Shown in pieces: positions 12,321 to 54,384 of a stretch of 56,984 nucleotides of DNA. Both the position numbers and the translations under genes were made by a program. The notes beneath the pieces were generated by a model. That model searched no databases. It had not been told where the DNA came from and worked only from the letters and a program-made list of their open reading frames with translations. The stretch lies in the IMG/VR virus record IMGVR_UViG_3300021057_000013, positions 1 to 56,984 of that record, one strand, 5' to 3'. Source of the stretch: a virus. Each line of letters starts with the position of its first letter. Within the stretch, counting starts at the first letter, position 1.

Positions 12321-13142
12321 ATGACCGATCCACCAGAGCCGGCAGCCCCGGACGAGACGATCAACATCGTGCAGATGGCTGACAAGGTCGGGATCAAGGA
12401 AGCGACGGTGCGCAAGTACGCATCCGAGTTCTCGATCCCGAGCTTCAAGCGGCCCAGTGGCGAGCGGCATTTCAGCGCCGCCCTGGTGCCCGTGTTCCGC
12501 CAGATCAAGGCCCTGCGCGAGGGCGGCATGGGCGCGGAGGAGATCCGCAGCAACATCGCCGAAACCCTCGCACAGGAAGCCGAGAAATTGGCGGTGCTGC
12601 CGGAAGCGCAGGGCGTGGATGTCGAGCTGATCGTCGATCGGGTCGCCGAGCGGATGCGCGGGGAGATCCAGAAGCATGATCAGGCCCTGCTGCGCTCGCT
12701 GATCGAGGAGCGCGACCGGGAGGCCGGCGCGCTGCGCGAGGAGCTCGGGCGGGCGAAAGCCCTGATCGAGATCGCGCAGGCCCAGCTCGGCGAGGCGCAG
12801 CAGCAGGCCCGGCTCTTGCCCGAAAAGGCGCAGAGCCTCGAGGCTGCCGAGCGCAAAGCCTGGCAGGCCGAGCAGATCGCTGAGCGGGCGCACGAGCGCG
12901 AGCAGGCCGCCGGGGCAGAGGCCCTGAAGCTGGCCGGCGAGCTCGAGCAGGCGCGCGATCAGATCCGGGCGCTGGAGGCCGAAGCCAAGGTATCCGCCGG
13001 GCAGATCACGGATCTGCAGGCGCAGGCCGCGGCCCAGGCCGGCCAGATCCGCGAGCTGCAGCAGCTGCTGCAGGCCGAGCGGGAGGCCCTAGCGCGCGAG
13101 CGCGGCCGGTCCTGGTGGGCGAAACTGACCCAAAAAACGTAA
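12321..13142 (+). CDS. MerR-type HTH with long coiled coil (KfrA/RacA-like)
   Basis: 273 residues. An N-terminal winged-helix of MerR type (IVQMADKVGIKEATVRKYASE, ~15-35, then FKRPSGERHFSAALVPVFRQIKALR, ~40-65) is followed by about 190 residues of coiled coil. The architecture resembles KfrA and RacA, DNA-binding proteins with long coils that organise plasmids or chromosomes, so a segregation or nucleoid role is possible. A regulator role is equally possible. TATGCT ends 6 bases before the ATG and no SD is seen, so the mRNA may be leaderless. Confidence 0.7.
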   Translation: MTDPPEPAAPDETINIVQMADKVGIKEATVRKYASEFSIPSFKRPSGERHFSAALVPVFRQIKALREGGMGAEEIRSNIAETLAQEAEKLAVLPEAQGVDVELIVDRVAERMRGEIQKHDQALLRSLIEERDREAGALREELGRAKALIEIAQAQLGEAQQQARLLPEKAQSLEAAERKAWQAEQIAERAHEREQAAGAEALKLAGELEQARDQIRALEAEAKVSAGQITDLQAQAAAQAGQIRELQQLLQAEREALARERGRSWWAKLTQKT

Positions 13143-24323: not shown

Positions 24324-24389
24324 CTGCTTGCTGAAGAAGTGGATCCTGCGCGCCAAAGGAGCGTATCTGATACGGGCCAGCCTATCTTG

Positions 24390-24417
24390 ACTGTACCACG
24401 GTAGCCGGCCCTCTCAA
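24390..24417 (-). promoter_or_regulatory. Late promoter copy 2 (tail unit)
   Basis: Minus strand: TTGAGA -35 (24412-24417), a 16-base spacer, extended -10 TGG-TACAGT (24390-24395). The downstream CAAGATAG..TGGCCC matches that of the promoter at 48260-48287. The 474-base gap 24142-24615 holds this promoter, its operators, two hairpins and the plus-strand promoter but no convincing gene. Confidence 0.7.
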
Positions 24418-24455: not shown

Positions 24456-24471
24456 TTGAGCAGGCTCTCAA
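24456..24471. promoter_or_regulatory. Operator palindrome upstream of late promoter copy 2
   Basis: TTGAGCAGGCTCTCAA, identical in its 16 bases to the two sites at 48304 and 48337 in front of the other late promoter. Confidence 0.7.
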
Positions 24472-45719: not shown

Positions 45720-46117
45720 CAGCCCTCCTTATTGCATTCGCTCACCAGATCGGCGTAATCGGTCGCAATGCTGGCCTTGAGCTCGGTCTTGGTTTCGCGC
45801 TTGTCCGATTGCCCCAGGCGCTGCTTGCCCAGCCAGATCTGCATGGTCGTATCGCCCTTGACGGCTTTATCGAACTGGAGCTCGCAAAGCAGGGCATCGC
45901 CCTTGGCTTTTTTAGCGGCCTCGTACTCGGAAAAACCCATCTTAAAATCCCGCTGAACAGACTTGTAGAGCGTCTCGGGATGGATGCCGAGCTTGGCGGC
46001 GACCTGGACGCCATTGCATCCGGCCATGAGCGCTTGATCGACCTTTTGCCAGTCGATGGGCGCTCGGGGCCGACCGTTGTTCTTGCGGCCGTCGTCTTGC
46101 TTGGTCTTGCCTGCCAT
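45719..46117 (-). CDS. Terminase small subunit-like protein
   Basis: 132 residues from ATG 46117, which overlaps the methyltransferase stop. IDWQKVDQALMAGCNGVQVAAKLGIHPETLYKSVQRDF (about 20-57) is a helix-turn-helix of the type that binds pac or cos DNA. The rest is helical, with a basic segment. Adjacent to the large subunit, as expected. An upstream GTG at 46132 could extend it by five residues. Confidence 0.7.
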   Translation of the reverse strand: MAGKTKQDDGRKNNGRPRAPIDWQKVDQALMAGCNGVQVAAKLGIHPETLYKSVQRDFKMGFSEYEAAKKAKGDALLCELQFDKAVKGDTTMQIWLGKQRLGQSDKRETKTELKASIATDYADLVSECNKEG

Positions 46118-47124
46118 CAGACCTTGAACCACTGCTTTCTGAGTTGATTGGCGACCTGAGCCATCATGACCGGCGGGACTGACATGCCGCAGATGTACTG
46201 GGTTCCAAGCCCCTGAAAATCATAATCCTGCGGAAAGGTCTGCATGGACCTGTATTCCTGATCAATCAGCTTTCTGGGCTCCAGCGGATGATAATAACCA
46301 GAGTTTGCTGTCAGGGTGGGCGCCACTTCATGAAGCGGCATCTTGTTTTCATTGAAAAACGAGCCCTTGGGATGGTGCTTGCTGAAGCTTTCGCCAGGCT
46401 TGCTGATAGACCAGTATGCAAACATCTTGGAGTCAGGATTAAGCATGTTGTCAGAGCTGGTCTGCATAAGATGCCGGAATGCAATTGGAGGAAGATTAAA
46501 GTTGAGCTTTAAAGAAGGGAGCCCAAGATCCTTCCGCCTGGCGATGAAGAAGGTGCGCTCCCGCTTCTGAGGAACCCCCATGCTGGCAGCATTCAAGAGA
46601 AAAAGCTGCGCATCATAGCCTGCGGTGGAAAACGCATCGGCAATCTGACGAACATAGGCCTTGGCATTGCCCTTAATCAAGCCAGAGACATTCTCGGCAA
46701 TCACAGCTTTGGGCTGCAGGCGCTGAGCTAAATCAATAAAGTGAAAGAACAAATCATCCAGCTTTTGAGCGGCCTGTCCCTCACGAAACACCTTCTTTTT
46801 GTTCCATGCCTTTTCTCTCACCCCTGCCGTGCTGAAACTGGAGCATGGGGGTGAGCCGTCTAAAATATCCAGAGCATACAATTCAGAGGGGAGCTCTTGC
46901 CTGGCCAGAAAGTCCCGAACATCTTCACAAAACAGATGCTTTGGCTTGTGGTTGGCTTGGTAAACTGCAGCCATCTGCGGATCGATCTCGACGCCGCCGA
47001 GATGCTGATAGCCTGCGAGCTTGTAGCCCATGGTTGAGCCGCCGCCACAGATAAAGGTGCCGAACACCTTCAGATTGACCGGCTCAGGATAATCCTTGAA
47101 CGACCAGTTCCAGGGAAACGTCAC
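46117..47124 (-). CDS. Solitary C5 cytosine DNA methyltransferase
   Basis: 335 residues. Motif I FGTFICGGGSTMGYKLAG (21-38), motif IV SPPCSSFS with catalytic Cys94, ENV (144-146), QKRERTFFI (186-194) and the later LTANSGYY and YRSMQTFPQDY segments all fit Dcm-type enzymes. No restriction enzyme gene is nearby. It probably protects phage DNA from host restriction. It is noticeably less GC-rich than its neighbours, a sign of recent acquisition. Inserted between the ParB-like and terminase genes. Confidence 0.88.
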   Translation of the reverse strand: MTFPWNWSFKDYPEPVNLKVFGTFICGGGSTMGYKLAGYQHLGGVEIDPQMAAVYQANHKPKHLFCEDVRDFLARQELPSELYALDILDGSPPCSSFSTAGVREKAWNKKKVFREGQAAQKLDDLFFHFIDLAQRLQPKAVIAENVSGLIKGNAKAYVRQIADAFSTAGYDAQLFLLNAASMGVPQKRERTFFIARRKDLGLPSLKLNFNLPPIAFRHLMQTSSDNMLNPDSKMFAYWSISKPGESFSKHHPKGSFFNENKMPLHEVAPTLTANSGYYHPLEPRKLIDQEYRSMQTFPQDYDFQGLGTQYICGMSVPPVMMAQVANQLRKQWFKV

Positions 47125-47741
47125 GCGTCTGACGCCTCCTGGCTCAGCAGGTACTGCAGGGCTTCCTCTTTGGAGTCGAGGCCCTGGGCTTCGGCGATGT
47201 CGTCCAGGGCCTGGCTGACGGCCAGAAACTCATCCTTGCTGAACTTGAGCTTGAGCTCCATGATGTCCTCAAAGGAATCGAGATCCAGCTCTTTGTTCTT
47301 GTCGCCGAAGCTGGACTCAGCATCCCAGTTTGGGACATCCAGGCCCCACTCGGCCAGCTGCTCGGCATTCCAGTCATTCGCCAGCAGATCCCAATCCCAA
47401 TCGCCGTTGGCGATGTTATCCCGGATCATGATCTCGCGCTCGCGCTCCTCGCTGAGCCCCGGCAGCAGGGCCGTCGGAACGTCCTTGATGCCGATATCGC
47501 GGGCCGCCTCGTAGCGCTGGTTCCCCGCGATGATAATCAGCTCGCCGGTTCGGTCGCTCAAAATGATCGGCCGGGCCTCGAAGTAATCGGGGTTCTCGCG
47601 GATAGACTGCACCAGCTTTTTAAAGCTCGCGTCCTTGATCGTGCGCGGGTTCTGCGGGTGTTTCTTCAGCGTGGCCAGCGGCCGGTACTGAATCACAGCG
47701 GCTTTAACCTCGCCTGCGGGTGCGGCGGCTTTTGCTTTCAT
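47121..47741 (-). CDS. ParB/Srx-like domain protein
   Basis: 206 residues. PLATLKKHPQNPRTI (about 21-35), then LIIIAGNQRYEAARDIGIKDVPTALLPG and EREREIMIRDNIANGDWDWDLLAN match the ParB/Sulfiredoxin-like domain of phage proteins linked to DNA methyltransferases and terminases. The helix-turn-helix and C-terminal dimer domain of a true partition ParB are missing, so a nuclease- or NTPase-like role in DNA modification or packaging is more likely. Overlaps the methyltransferase start. Confidence 0.75.
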   Translation of the reverse strand: MKAKAAAPAGEVKAAVIQYRPLATLKKHPQNPRTIKDASFKKLVQSIRENPDYFEARPIILSDRTGELIIIAGNQRYEAARDIGIKDVPTALLPGLSEEREREIMIRDNIANGDWDWDLLANDWNAEQLAEWGLDVPNWDAESSFGDKNKELDLDSFEDIMELKLKFSKDEFLAVSQALDDIAEAQGLDSKEEALQYLLSQEASDA

Positions 47742-48250
47742 GCGCTGGCAGGCTCGCTTTCGGGCTCAGGCGGATCGTTTTTGAAGAGCACCAGGCGCTG
47801 AAACGCGCGGCCGAGCACCTCAAGCGAGGCCTCGTAATGCAGCTCGGGCTTGACCTTGGGCATCAGCTCATTCTTGGCCCAGTGGGGCTGCTCGAGCTTC
47901 AGCAGCGTGCGGATGACATACTCATGCCAGCCCTGCACCCCCATCCCGCCGACCTGGACCTTGATCCGGCGCAGGTGCAGAATCACCTCTTCCATCTGCC
48001 CATGGGTCACATCCGCCTGCAGGGATTTGCCTTGCGGGACGAGATGCGGCATGGGGATCGCCTTGTCGTGGCCATCGTGCCGCAGCGGCAGGCCGTCGAT
48101 GGCGACCGCGCCGGGCACCGCGGCCTCATCCGAGCGCTTGAGCGCACCGGAATAGAACGCACGGGTCAGAGTGATCAGCTGGCCGCGATCGACATGCTCC
48201 CAGAGGGGCAGAGAGGAGAGAGGCTTGGTCTTTTTTGCTCTATGGGCCAT
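47738..48250 (-). CDS. Hypothetical protein, first gene of late unit 1
   Basis: 170 residues from ATG 48250. Alpha/beta start (EHVDRGQLITLTRAFYSGAL) and later HYEASLEVLGRAFQRLVLFKND. The start lies only 9 bases past the -10 box at 48260-48265 and no SD precedes it, so the mRNA is probably leaderless. It opens the unit containing the ParB-like, methyltransferase, terminase and head genes. Function unknown. Confidence 0.6.
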   Translation of the reverse strand: MAHRAKKTKPLSSLPLWEHVDRGQLITLTRAFYSGALKRSDEAAVPGAVAIDGLPLRHDGHDKAIPMPHLVPQGKSLQADVTHGQMEEVILHLRRIKVQVGGMGVQGWHEYVIRTLLKLEQPHWAKNELMPKVKPELHYEASLEVLGRAFQRLVLFKNDPPEPESEPASA

Positions 48251-48259
48251 TCTATCTTG

Positions 48260-48287
48260 ACGATAGCACAGGGCTGCGGGCTCTCAA
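48260..48287 (-). promoter_or_regulatory. Late promoter copy 1 (head/terminase unit)
   Basis: Minus strand TTGAGA -35 (48282-48287), 16-base spacer, extended -10 TGC-TATCGT (48260-48265), then CAAGATAG..TGGCCC shared with the copy at 24390-24417. Two TTGAGCAGGCTCTCAA palindromes lie upstream at 48304 and 48337, 33 bases (three turns) apart. Confidence 0.7.
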
Positions 48288-48303
48288 GGGCGCTCAGCGC
48301 GGG

Positions 48304-48321
48304 CTTGAGCAGGCTCTCAAG
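48304..48321. promoter_or_regulatory. Operator palindrome upstream of late promoter copy 1
   Basis: CTTGAGCAGGCTCTCAAG, an inverted repeat with a six-base spacer (CAGGCT). It starts 17 bases beyond the -35. Same site as at 24456-24471. Confidence 0.7.
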
Positions 48322-48336
48322 AAAAGGGGCCGATTC

Positions 48337-48353
48337 CTTGAGCAGGCTCTCAA
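48337..48353. promoter_or_regulatory. Operator palindrome upstream of late promoter copy 1
   Basis: CTTGAGCAGGCTCTCAA, a second copy 33 bases from the first. It overlaps the last codons and stop of the TnpB-like gene that precedes it on the minus strand, so it would also be the first structured element in RNA downstream of that gene. Confidence 0.7.
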
Positions 48354-48895
48354 ACGGCGACCAGCTCGCCATACGTGATCCCCTCGGGGGTGTAGATCAA
48401 TTCGGTCGGGGCGAGCTGCAGATCCAGCAGCCAGGCGTCGCCCTGGCGGGTCAGATCGCCGCGGCGCAGCTTGCAGCTTTTCAGGGTCTGGTAATCCTCG
48501 GGCCGGGGCAGATCGAAGGGCAGCAGGACACGCTCGGACAGCTGGCGCTCGGGCAGCAGCAGGGAGATGCTGAACTGCCGGCCCTTGATGCTCAGGCCGT
48601 TGTCGTAGTAGACCAGCTTTTGCGGGGCCAGCGGGCCGCTGACGATGGCGAGATCGTAGGAGGCCTTGCGGTAGGTGGCAACCGTACTGATCGCGACCGA
48701 GCAGAGCGGCCCGCTGAGGTAGGTCTCGCGGCGAGCGCGGCCGTACATCTGGGCGCGGATCTGGAAGACATCCAGCAGATGGGCGGGCGCCTGGGCATGG
48801 ATCCAGCCGCAGATCCGCGCAAACTCGTCCAGCGTCGCGGCCAGGGCCTTCTCAGTCTCGGCGTCAGGAAGCAGGCGGGCTTGCAAGTGGATCAT
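48350..48895 (-). CDS. TnpB/OrfB N-terminal-like protein lacking RuvC domain
   Basis: 181 residues from ATG 48895 behind AAGGAG. The start (LQARLLPDAETEKALAATL, FARICGWIHAQ) and the later SVAISTVATYRKA, VYYDNGLSIKGR, VLLPFDL and DAWLLDLQLAPTE follow, in order, the N-terminal WED/REC region of IS605 OrfB (TnpB) proteins of the type with LLPTPEQ...ACNWIAE starts. The protein ends (YTPEGITYGELVAV) where the first RuvC motif should begin, so no nuclease is present. The stop is followed by hairpin repeats. It may be a domesticated fragment, an RNA-binding regulator, or decay. The identification is from recalled family patterns. Confidence 0.6.
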   Translation of the reverse strand: MIHLQARLLPDAETEKALAATLDEFARICGWIHAQAPAHLLDVFQIRAQMYGRARRETYLSGPLCSVAISTVATYRKASYDLAIVSGPLAPQKLVYYDNGLSIKGRQFSISLLLPERQLSERVLLPFDLPRPEDYQTLKSCKLRRGDLTRQGDAWLLDLQLAPTELIYTPEGITYGELVAV

Positions 48896-49304
48896 GGTGG
48901 TCTTTGTCTCCTTGGGGCGATAATGAAACGCTGAATCTCTGCATCAAAATGGCGCGGGAAACAGATTTCCCGCGCCAGGTCGGGTGCTCTTCCTGCCAAA
49001 AGGCGAGCAGCTCCTCAACAATCGATTGAACATGGGCTTTAGAGGCGCGCATTCTGGCCCTAAGAAGGTAGGAGTTTTGAATTTCAGCCTGACAAGCCAG
49101 GCGCCGATCATCGGGAGTGAGAAAAACAGCCTGCAGCCGAAGATAGCGCCGGCCATGCCGCTTGATTCGGCTGGCCTTCCATGTCCACCGCTTCACATCG
49201 GCAATAGCATTCAACTGCGGGTCATCGTTTATAAATCCAGAAATCTCTTCGGGTAACAGGAGCTTGAGATTGGTGATAGGAAGCACCGGCTGGCCTTCGC
49301 TCAT
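48864..49304 (-). CDS. Hypothetical protein upstream of TnpB-like gene
   Basis: 146 residues from ATG 49304. Basic central region (VKRWTWKASRIKRHGRRYLRLQAVFL) and a helical segment later (AHVQSIVEELLAFWQEEH). Overlaps the TnpB-like gene by 32 bases, so the two are probably co-translated. Basicity suggests nucleic acid binding. No family recognised. Slightly lower GC than its neighbours. Confidence 0.55.
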   Translation of the reverse strand: MSEGQPVLPITNLKLLLPEEISGFINDDPQLNAIADVKRWTWKASRIKRHGRRYLRLQAVFLTPDDRRLACQAEIQNSYLLRARMRASKAHVQSIVEELLAFWQEEHPTWRGKSVSRAILMQRFSVSLSPQGDKDHHDPLASPPAS

Positions 49305-50464: not shown

Positions 50465-50674
50465 CTACCTCATCTCCTCTTCTGCCGCCGCCATGATCTC
50501 GGGAAGTCTGGCCATCTGCCCGAGCGAATCGCCGAACTCGCGAGCCTCCGACAGACTCAGATCTATCTCGATCGTCAGGCGCAGAAAGGGCCTGACAGAA
50601 TCGCCGGTCTTCACCGAGAAGCGAACACCATCGCCGGTTTCCAGGCTGTGCTGAATCAGCTTCTCGATGCTCAC
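50465..50674 (-). CDS. Small hypothetical protein
   Basis: 69 residues: an amphipathic start, TGDGVRFSVKTGDSV and a helical end (FGDSLGQMARLPEIMAAAEE). Overlaps the glycosyltransferase gene by 4 bases. Not recognised. Confidence 0.5.
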   Translation of the reverse strand: MSIEKLIQHSLETGDGVRFSVKTGDSVRPFLRLTIEIDLSLSEAREFGDSLGQMARLPEIMAAAEEEMR

Positions 50675-52254
50675 GGCGGGCTATCCTTTCCGGCCAGAAT
50701 CTGCTCATAGGCTCGCTCGAGACTGCCGACGAAGGCGCCGGCATCGAAGATGGGCGAGCGGCTGATCTGCTGCCGAATGTGCTGCCGGATGGCCAGCCGC
50801 TTGCTGCCGTCGAGCGCGCCGACCGCCAGGCCGAGATGCACGGCCAGGCGCACATAGTCTTCCGGGGTCGCGGCGACGTACTCGCCGAGATCGGCCGCGC
50901 GCAGGATCGAGACGCTGGTATTGATGCCCCCGGCATCGCAGGCAATCAGCGGGCAGCCCATGTAGAGCGCTTCCGAGCTGGTGACGCCGCCTTGGTAGGG
51001 GAAGGGATCCAGGGCGATATCGACGCCGTGATACCACTCCATGAACTCCCGCCGGCTGCCGGCTCCCGCGCCGAGAATCCGGGTCGGGTCGATGCCGTGA
51101 TCGGCGAAGCGGGCTTTCAGTTTCTCCAGAATCTCAGGGTCGCTCAGGGCCTTGGCGCGAAGCGAGAGGAGAGAGGAGGGGATCAGGCGCAGGATGTGGG
51201 CCCAGCATTCGATCACGGTGTCGTTCAGCTTGAAGAGGCTGTTGGCGCTGCCGAAGACGACGGCCGCGCGATCGGGCACCTGCAGCGGCAACTCGGGCTC
51301 GGGCCGATAGAACATATTGCTGGGAATGCGGGCCAGGCGCTCGGGGATCAGGTGGGCCTGATGATCGGGGATCATAGCATCATCCAGCAGGACATAGTCG
51401 ATCGCCGGGTGGGCAATCGGCGTGATGAAGCCCAGGCCCGTGGCAATCCGGGGCGCGGGCTTGCGGGCGAGCAGGGGCAGGCGATGGCCCGAGCTGTAAC
51501 CGCTGAGATCGACCAGCAGATCAAGCTTGTGCTGGCGCATCAGCAGCTCAGCGGCGCGATCGGTGCGGCGGGAGATGTCGTAAAAGCGGTGCTCAGTCTT
51601 CAGGCGCGCGGTCAGATCGTCGGGTTTGTCGGTGTTGGAGTAGAGAAAGAGCTCGAAGCGCTCGCGGTCGTAATGCTGAAAGAGCGGCTCGAGCAGGACC
51701 ATGACCGTATGCCGGTTGAAATCGGCCGAGAGGTAGCCGAGCCGGATCTTGCGATCCCGCGGCGCTGGCGGCAGCACCCAGGGGCGGATCGGGCGGCTCA
51801 GGCGCTGGCGGCAAAAATCGCGCATCTCGGCGGCGAAGGCCGGCAGGGTGCGCAGCGTCGTGGCGGTGAAGACCAGCTCGGCATGGGCGGCCAGCGTCGC
51901 GGCGCGATCCCCGCTGCGCTGGAGCAGGGCGACGGCCTCACGCTTCAGGCGCAGCCCGCGCTCGGGCTCCAGCGTGTCGCCGTAGACATTGGCCAGGTTG
52001 CCCAGGGCCTGGGCCTGGTCGGGATCGAGCGTCAGCGCGCGCCGGTAGCAGCGGATCGCCTGGCCGAGCTTCCAGTTCTGCTGGTAGATCGCGCCGAGGT
52101 TCGTCCAGGTGTTCGCATCCTCGTGGTAGTTCAGGGCTTCGGTGTAGGCCGTGATCGCTGCGTTCCAATCGCCGGCTTCGAAGGCCGCCGCGCCGCGGGC
52201 ATAGGCGGCAGCATGGGCGGCCGGGATCGCTTTGGCGGGCAGGTAGAGCGTCAT
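50671..52254 (-). CDS. TPR plus OGT-type (GT41-like) glycosyltransferase
   Basis: 527 residues from ATG 52254, which overlaps the previous stop. Residues ~15-130 are TPR repeats (AITAYTEALNYHED, NLGAIYQQNWKLGQAIRCYRRAL, ALGNLANVYGDT). From ~165 the O-GlcNAc-transferase-like catalytic region follows: RLGYLSADFNRHTV (171-184), LLVDLSGYSSGHRL (246-259), LDPFPYQGGVTSSEALYMG (415-433). These match the family's conserved segments. Such enzymes add sugars to Ser/Thr of proteins. In a phage it may modify host proteins or virion proteins; the target is unknown. Confidence 0.85.
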   Translation of the reverse strand: MTLYLPAKAIPAAHAAAYARGAAAFEAGDWNAAITAYTEALNYHEDANTWTNLGAIYQQNWKLGQAIRCYRRALTLDPDQAQALGNLANVYGDTLEPERGLRLKREAVALLQRSGDRAATLAAHAELVFTATTLRTLPAFAAEMRDFCRQRLSRPIRPWVLPPAPRDRKIRLGYLSADFNRHTVMVLLEPLFQHYDRERFELFLYSNTDKPDDLTARLKTEHRFYDISRRTDRAAELLMRQHKLDLLVDLSGYSSGHRLPLLARKPAPRIATGLGFITPIAHPAIDYVLLDDAMIPDHQAHLIPERLARIPSNMFYRPEPELPLQVPDRAAVVFGSANSLFKLNDTVIECWAHILRLIPSSLLSLRAKALSDPEILEKLKARFADHGIDPTRILGAGAGSRREFMEWYHGVDIALDPFPYQGGVTSSEALYMGCPLIACDAGGINTSVSILRAADLGEYVAATPEDYVRLAVHLGLAVGALDGSKRLAIRQHIRQQISRSPIFDAGAFVGSLERAYEQILAGKDSPP

Positions 52255-52520
52255 GTCAGCAGGCCTTCCTTTTCCATCGCTTCGCCGACCACCTCGGCCC
52301 ACCAGATCTCCCCGCCGCGGGCAGCATCGGATTTGGCCGCGGCAGCGATCCGGGCCAGCTTGCCCTCGGCGGCTTCGGCGCGGGCGGTCATTGCCTCCAG
52401 CTGCTCGGCCAGCGCCTGCAGCTCGATCCGCAACGGATGCCGCTGCTCCAGCTCCTGCAGGCTGGTCTGCAGGGTGTCGGGCAGGTTGTGCAGAATCGGG
52501 CGGATCGGATCCCGGCTCAT
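52251..52520 (-). CDS. Small coiled-coil protein
   Basis: 89 residues, with a coiled coil at ~20-65 (LQELEQRHPLRIELQALAEQLEAM). Directly upstream of the glycosyltransferase, ATGA-coupled; may be a partner. Not recognised. Confidence 0.5.
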   Translation of the reverse strand: MSRDPIRPILHNLPDTLQTSLQELEQRHPLRIELQALAEQLEAMTARAEAAEGKLARIAAAAKSDAARGGEIWWAEVVGEAMEKEGLLT

Positions 52521-52798
52521 AGGCGGCCTGCTTGCTCGAGCAGATACCGGACCCGGCCGGCCTGCTGGATCGGCGGGTGCTGGCTGGTAACGGCTTTTTC
52601 AATATCATGCAGCAGGACCCAGGCCTCGATCAGGTAGCGCTCGAAAACCCGCGCGCGCTCCTCGGCCGAGATCTGGATCGCGGCAGGCATGGAAAACATC
52701 AGGGGCCGGCCGTCGGCGGTTTCGGCGTGCAAAACGATCACATCCGGATTCAAGGGTGAAATGATTTCACCTTTGACCTGGGCTTGGCGATCGCTCAT
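52517..52798 (-). CDS. Hypothetical protein overlapping palindrome copy 3
   Basis: 93 residues, strand-rich first half and helical second half. Residues ~9-16 (KGEIISPL) are encoded by the 23-bp palindrome, so the site is maintained within coding sequence. Overlaps both neighbours by 4 bases. Not recognised. Confidence 0.5.
   Translation of the reverse strand: MSDRQAQVKGEIISPLNPDVIVLHAETADGRPLMFSMPAAIQISAEERARVFERYLIEAWVLLHDIEKAVTSQHPPIQQAGRVRYLLEQAGRL
52752..52774. repeat. 23-bp palindrome, copy 3 of 3
   Basis: AAGGGTGAAAT, central G, ATTTCACCTTT; one arm mismatch. It lies within a coding sequence, unlike the other two copies at 8933 and 24484. Confidence 0.8.
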
Positions 52799-53916: not shown

Positions 53917-54384
53917 TCAGGCCAGGAACAGCCGCACGCCGAGGGCCTGGCCGAGCGCCTGCAGGTACTCATGCCGGGGATGGGTACGCCGGCCGAGCTC
54001 CAGCGATTTGACATAATCCATGCTGGTATCCGAAACCTCTCCGAGATGGGCCTGGCTCCAGCCGTGCCCGACGCGCAGCAGCTCCAGCGAGCGCGGGGTG
54101 AACTGGCACAGGGGCGGGGCGCCAGGGCTCGGCGGCAGCTGCTGCAGCGGCCAGATGCTCCAGATATTCCCGATCCGCTCGCGCATGCCATCGGTCACGC
54201 TGGCCTCGCCGCTGAGCAGCTTGCGGGCCAGGGACCGGGACTTGCGCAGCAGCGGGGCCAGGGCGCGGGCATCGATCCGCGCGGCCTGGCAGAGCAGGCG
54301 CAGCGTGTGCGCGTCGAGCTCCAGCCAGAAGGGATCGCCCGCGCAGGGAGCCCACTGGAGCCGCTTATAAATGTCGTCGCTCAT
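53917..54384 (-). CDS. Double HTH (XRE-like) regulator
   Basis: 155 residues. Two HTH-like segments: AARIDARALAPLLRKSRSLARKLLSG (about 33-58) and HGWSQAHLGEVSDTSMDYVKSLELGRRTHP (about 108-136). The second is a clear Cro/CI-type domain. Located just upstream of the strong promoter at 53792, so it may control it. No C-terminal self-cleavage domain, so it is not a classical SOS-inducible CI. Confidence 0.7.
   Translation of the reverse strand: MSDDIYKRLQWAPCAGDPFWLELDAHTLRLLCQAARIDARALAPLLRKSRSLARKLLSGEASVTDGMRERIGNIWSIWPLQQLPPSPGAPPLCQFTPRSLELLRVGHGWSQAHLGEVSDTSMDYVKSLELGRRTHPRHEYLQALGQALGVRLFLA

What the first reader, a model, noticed from the sequence alone, without database searches (positions are those of the whole stretch)
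48350..48895. Isolated TnpB N-terminal domain with no RuvC
The protein follows the TnpB WED/REC region and stops where RuvC begins. It is a complete ORF with SD and overlaps its neighbour, so it looks maintained rather than decayed. Hairpin repeats (TTGAGAGCCTGCTCAA on the minus strand) begin at its stop, in the place where TnpB guide RNAs lie, and the same repeat lies at the other late promoter. A nuclease-free RNA-guided or RNA-binding regulator of late transcription, in the spirit of TldR repressors, is a speculative but testable idea.
Basis: partly seen in the sequence, partly recalled or inferred. Interest (0 to 1): 0.78.

Follow-up and report, generated by a model that had tools for sequence, protein, structure and literature searches.

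The report
RuvC-less TnpB recognition lobe in phage
This phage carries an intact, well-kept gene for only the front half (the DNA- and RNA-gripping lobe) of the TnpB RNA-guided DNA cutter, with the cutting half gone and no guide RNA beside it, so it is probably a repurposed binding protein; the neighbouring repeats belong to ordinary-looking late promoters.

Summary
The 181-aa ORF at 48350-48895(-) is a diverged homologue of the TnpB WED/REC recognition lobe. A TnpB profile picks it out of 1,330 window ORFs (E=8e-11; next 0.09), the nearest full-length TnpB shares 32% over 158 aa, and an MSA-guided model matches only Cas12f/TnpB/Cas12 structures among top PDB hits. It ends at the WED/RuvC junction. 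No RuvC is found anywhere in the window. Codon usage is strongly phage-like, and neutral simulations argue against an old open relic.

The RNA-guided reading is not supported. A profile of relatives' tnpB-3'/omegaRNA DNA finds nothing in the window (controls E<=1e-51), the region's RNA fold is unremarkable (z=-0.42), and the protein has lost most TnpB-conserved positions and net positive charge. The TTGAGAG repeats are promoter architecture: at 48.3 kb and 24.4 kb they form the -35 box (TTGAGA-16-extended -10) plus two upstream dyads.

Best reading: a domesticated RuvC-less TnpB lobe acting as a protein-only binder (dsDNA binder, or decoy of host RNA-guided nucleases). Function is untested; no relative was found to measure selection.

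The parts
48350..48895 (-). RuvC-less TnpB WED/REC homologue, 181 aa
   Evidence: TnpB HMM E=8e-11; BLAST 32% to L033; AF2 pLDDT 89 and Foldseek hits to Cas12f/TnpB; GC3 0.87, phage-like codons
48908..48913 (-). AAGGAG Shine-Dalgarno-like, 12 nt before the ATG
   Evidence: sequence
48338..48353 (-). distal dyad TTGAGAGCCTGCTCAA, overlaps the tnpB-N stop codon
48305..48320 (-). middle dyad TTGAGAGCCTGCTCAA
48260..48287 (-). late promoter: -35 TTGAGA (third copy of TTGAGAG), 16 nt, extended -10 TGcTATCGT
48247..48261 (-). GTCAAGATAGNNTGG element shared with the 24-kb promoter
   Evidence: exact match only at the two promoters
24456..24471 (-). second promoter: distal dyad TTGAGAGCCTGCTCAA
24435..24451 (-). 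second promoter: middle dyad TTGAGAGAGCGTCTCAA
24390..24417 (-). second promoter: -35 TTGAGA, 16 nt, extended -10 TGgTACAGT
24377..24391 (-). GTCAAGATAGNNTGG element of the second promoter

Best explanation
The ORF is a phage-domesticated recognition lobe (REC inserted in WED/OB-fold) of a TnpB from the cyanobacterial-type clade. The RuvC nuclease/TNB lobe and the cis omegaRNA are gone, and the gene has since diverged strongly while staying open and codon-adapted. It cannot cleave DNA. What remains is the half that, in TnpB, forms the WED-REC cleft holding the TAM duplex and part of the omegaRNA-binding surface. Inferred mechanism: a protein-only nucleic-acid or partner binder, either (a) a dsDNA binder using the old TAM cleft or (b) a decoy or dominant-negative factor against host TnpB/Cas12-type effectors. 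I rate (a) and (b) about equal, roughly 0.25-0.3 each. The TTGAGAG repeats beside it are operator/-35 elements of a late promoter, separate from any guide RNA. Shown: homology, absence of RuvC and of a detectable omegaRNA, promoter-like geometry, codon adaptation. Inferred: selection, binding, partner.
For: Profile and BLAST homology; model and fold matches; no RuvC by HMM or tblastn in the window; no tnpB-3'/omegaRNA DNA, with strong positive controls, and no Rfam match; codon score and GC3 among the highest of the phage's genes, unlike the neighbours at 48864 and 46117; neutral drift to 50% aa change keeps the frame open in only 0.5% of simulations, while the tree branch is 3.87 changes/site and only 25 of 57 strongly conserved TnpB positions remain (others average 90%, lowest 60%). 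ISDra2 TnpB: the TAM duplex sits in the WED/REC cleft and several scaffold stems are held by RuvC (PMC10097598).
Against: No relative of this gene or phage was found, so dN/dS cannot be measured. Net charge is 0 (other TnpB N-lobes +4 to +18 over the compared columns, this one +3), which is poor for a nucleic-acid binder. The AF2 model leans on an MSA of TnpBs; the single-sequence model failed (pLDDT 35). Much divergence could predate loss of RuvC. A terminator-like hairpin lies just upstream.
Confidence: 0.6

Rival explanations
1. Relic: a TnpB insertion truncated by deletion, still open by chance and not selected.
For: Broken and truncated TnpB copies are common in relatives, e.g. L111 with a RuvC fragment in a separate open frame just downstream. 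No relatives exist to prove selection. Low charge and loss of conserved residues.
Against: Frame open at extreme divergence, phage-like codons with GC3 0.87, SD and operon overlap, no RuvC debris.
Confidence: 0.2
2. TldR-like RNA-guided repressor of late promoters, with a guide RNA from the repeats.
For: Repeats begin at the stop codon and recur at the other late promoter; TldRs are phage-encoded TnpB derivatives (PMC13418256).
Against: RuvC, which holds several scaffold stems in TnpB (PMC10097598), is absent; no omegaRNA sequence, Rfam match or unusual fold; the repeats are -35 and upstream elements with the same geometry at both promoters; net charge 0.
Confidence: 0.04
3. Protein-only transcription regulator that binds the TTGAG dyads with the old TAM cleft.
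For: The retained lobe is the TAM-reading lobe; ISDra2's TAM is TTGAT (PMC10097598) and the dyad arms are TTGAG; the gene abuts one of the two promoters.
Against: Only adjacency and a 4-of-5-base likeness to a distant TnpB's TAM; ordinary regulators are present (HTH_31 at 53917-54384, MerR at 12321-13142) and 16-bp dyads suit them; conserved REC residues changed (N63P, R71T).
Confidence: 0.07
4. Decoy or dominant-negative inhibitor of host TnpB or Cas12-type nucleases (guide-RNA or protein partner).
For: Retains the lobe that in Cas12f and TnpB contacts guide, PAM/TAM duplex or partner protomer; the best fold matches are Cas12f subunits, which work as dimers (PMC10097598).
Against: No direct evidence; host unknown; few basic residues.
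Confidence: 0.25

Closest known systems
TnpB (IS200/IS605, cyanobacterial-type clade; nearest L033 in MAG SXND01, Gloeobacter WP_230844406.1)
   Same: WED/REC sequence and predicted fold across nearly the whole 181 aa
   Different: no RuvC, TNB or catalytic D/E/D, no omegaRNA, 44% of conserved positions kept
TldR (TnpB-like nuclease-dead repressors)
   Same: phage-borne TnpB derivative without nuclease activity
   Different: TldR keeps an inactivated RuvC and a gRNA; here RuvC is deleted and no gRNA is found
Cas12f
   Same: best PDB fold matches are Cas12f WED/REC
   Different: no RuvC, no matching RNA scaffold found; sequence identity about 10%
Other N-lobe-only TnpB ORFs: Thermobacillus plasmid (L006), Blastocatellia (L070), Cytophagales (L076)
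   Same: also end at profile positions 168-171 without a RuvC match at the locus
   Different: unrelated branches and contexts; may be truncations; none in a phage late-gene setting

Membership tests
TnpB | WED/REC recognition lobe | tested here: met
TnpB | RuvC nuclease with D/E/D and TNB zinc finger | tested here: not met
   no RuvC match in any window ORF or by tblastn
TnpB | omegaRNA overlapping the tnpB 3' end and right end | tested here: not met
   3'-end/omegaRNA profile: no match, controls E<=1e-51; Rfam none
TldR | RuvC present but catalytically inactivated | tested here: not met
   RuvC absent
TldR | adjacent guide RNA matching a promoter | tested here: not met
   no scaffold, fold z=-0.42; repeats explained as promoter elements
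TldR | RNA-guided DNA binding and repression | not testable with these tools
   needs RIP-seq, ChIP or a reporter
Decoy inhibitor of RNA-guided nucleases | inhibits a TnpB or Cas12 effector | not testable with these tools
   needs a co-expression assay

The most novel reading that the evidence does not exclude
A TnpB recognition lobe turned into a protein-only, sequence-specific DNA-binding factor: the old TAM-reading cleft recognises the TTGAG dyads at both phage late promoters and controls late transcription without RNA or nuclease.
Probability: 0.06. Interest if true: 0.88.

Novelty: new variant of a known kind. Interest (0 to 1): 0.52.

Why it matters
Known TnpB exaptations (Cas12, Cas12k, TldR, Fanzor) keep the RuvC fold even when it is dead. 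A maintained derivative consisting of the recognition lobe alone would show that this half can live alone, and would make testable whether the TAM/PAM-reading cleft can work as a stand-alone DNA-binding domain or as a decoy against RNA-guided nucleases. In the open-access library searched I found no report of a functional RuvC-less TnpB; one paper treats such Fanzor hits as probable partial proteins (PMC10432273).

Tried and rejected
Pfam, NCBIfam and PHROGs give no significant hit for the protein itself; single-family searches of the window with PF01385 and PF12323 are also empty, so homology was shown with profiles built here. Single-sequence AF2 failed. Direct searches for relatives of the protein, the terminase and a virion structural protein in viral contigs found none, nor did tblastn in the phage collection for the protein and its downstream neighbour. 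The promoter pattern found no other virus. The long + strand ORF 47720-48934 is antisense with no coding signal. The repeats as an omegaRNA hairpin array were rejected. A survey of 199 genomes of the phylum of G002 added little on N-lobe-only ORFs. One consensus cyanobacterial TnpB sequence used as a search aid was written from memory; all conclusions rest on the database sequences it led to.

Full report
Setting. The window is a 57-kb IMG/VR virus record. The minus strand carries a late module: terminase, portal, a virion structural protein and a tape measure protein of 2366 aa. The terminase and structural-protein searches found no relative in the viral contigs, and phage terminases match only at 23-27% identity.

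Observation. The ORF 48350-48895(-) encodes 181 aa, with AAGGAG 12 nt before the ATG and a 32-nt overlap with the ORF upstream. Library searches do not recognise it. tblastn against plasmids gave one notable hit, over residues 1-181, to a Gloeobacter 'transposase' (TnpB; E=2e-3 in 7.3 Gb). Ten plasmid TnpB loci, one of them itself N-lobe-only, then 69 genome and 21 viral loci from the cyanobacterial-type clade, were collected. A profile of nine or ten TnpB N-lobes scores the protein 33-36 bits, against 13.5-14.7 bits for the best of 2000 shuffles; 24.8 bits remain after the Gloeobacter row is left out. A profile of 74 TnpBs ranks it first of 1330 window ORFs (8e-11; next 0.09). The nearest sequence, L033, shares 32% over 158 aa (E=1.5e-13). 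With a 48-row alignment AF2 gives pLDDT 89 and pTM 0.83, and all 22 PDB matches with E<=0.001 are Cas12f, TnpB or Cas12k. This model leans on the MSA; the single-sequence model failed.

RuvC is absent. No ORF in the window significantly matches the RuvC part of the profile and tblastn with full-length TnpBs finds none. The protein ends about 16 residues after the last WED strand. That tail can be aligned to the hairpin following RuvC-I, with the catalytic GVDLG strand missing, which fits an in-frame loss inside a once complete TnpB.

Maintained or decayed? GC by codon position is 0.67/0.44/0.87 and the synonymous codon score (0.73) is the highest of the ten ORFs tested, above the terminase (0.66); the upstream ORF (-0.14) and the methylase (-0.01) look foreign by the same measure. 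Only 25 of 57 strongly conserved TnpB positions are kept, against a mean of 90% and a minimum of 60% in other members, and the tree branch is 3.87 changes/site. If such change were neutral the frame would rarely stay open: 22% at 20% aa change, 3.1% at 40%, 0.5% at 50%. I infer selection for a changed function. No close relative exists to test this by dN/dS, and part of the divergence may predate the loss of RuvC. By contrast L111, a viral pseudogene, has a RuvC fragment in a separate open frame just downstream.

Repeats. TTGAGAGCCTGCTCAA occurs exactly three times. The region at 48.3 kb and that at 24.4 kb share TTGAGA-16 nt-TGn-TATCGT/TACAGT promoter-like sites whose -35 box is itself a TTGAGAG copy, GTCAAGATAGNNTGGCCC downstream, and a TTGAG dyad 59-60 nt upstream of that element, with a second dyad further up. 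This is an operator or activator arrangement at two late promoters. There is no sign of an omegaRNA: a DNA profile of relatives' tnpB 3' ends finds nothing here while held-out relatives score E=1e-51 to 1e-68, Rfam finds nothing, and the fold of the 259 nt is ordinary (z=-0.42).

Mechanism. In ISDra2 TnpB the TAM duplex lies in the WED-REC cleft, while the omegaRNA scaffold lies on WED plus RuvC, with several stems held by RuvC (PMC10097598). Removing RuvC therefore keeps the duplex-binding cleft and loses the nuclease and much of the RNA grip. Net charge has dropped to 0 and conserved REC residues have changed (N63P, R71T), so binding, if any, has been retuned. I favour a protein-only binder (dsDNA, or a host RNA-guided effector as decoy), and give low odds to an RNA-guided repressor. 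The likeness of the dyad arm TTGAG to the ISDra2 TAM TTGAT is noted as a lead only.

Comparison. It fails two defining features of TldR and of TnpB proper (a RuvC domain and a cis guide RNA), so it is not filed as either. Other N-lobe-only ORFs ending at the same junction (L006, L070, L076) also sit on longer than typical branches (0.72-1.96, median 0.21), which hints, without proving, that stand-alone lobes recur.

Noticed in passing
window 48950-48977 (-): Terminator-like hairpin (12 pairs, TTTTG tail) inside the 3' end of ORF 48864-49304, whose codon usage is foreign to the phage (GC3 0.56): looks like a recently acquired accessory gene with its own terminator.
   Followed up: partly
window 50671-52608 (-): Phage protein with TPR repeats and a C-terminal GT41 (O-GlcNAc-transferase-like) domain.
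   Followed up: no
window 48250-48265 (-): Promoter -10 ends about 10 nt before the ATG of the first late gene (48250), so that mRNA may be leaderless or nearly so.
   Followed up: no
window 46117-47124 (-): C5-cytosine methylase with foreign codon usage next to a ParB-N protein whose relatives include Bacteroides and Lactococcus phages.
   Followed up: partly
L006:1504-2034, L070:1414-1926, L076:3001-3549: Three further TnpB ORFs that end at the WED/RuvC junction with no RuvC match at the locus, on a plasmid and in two MAGs.
   Followed up: partly
MAG SXND01 (G001): Carries at least 11 loci matching this protein, including the nearest relative L033.
   Followed up: no
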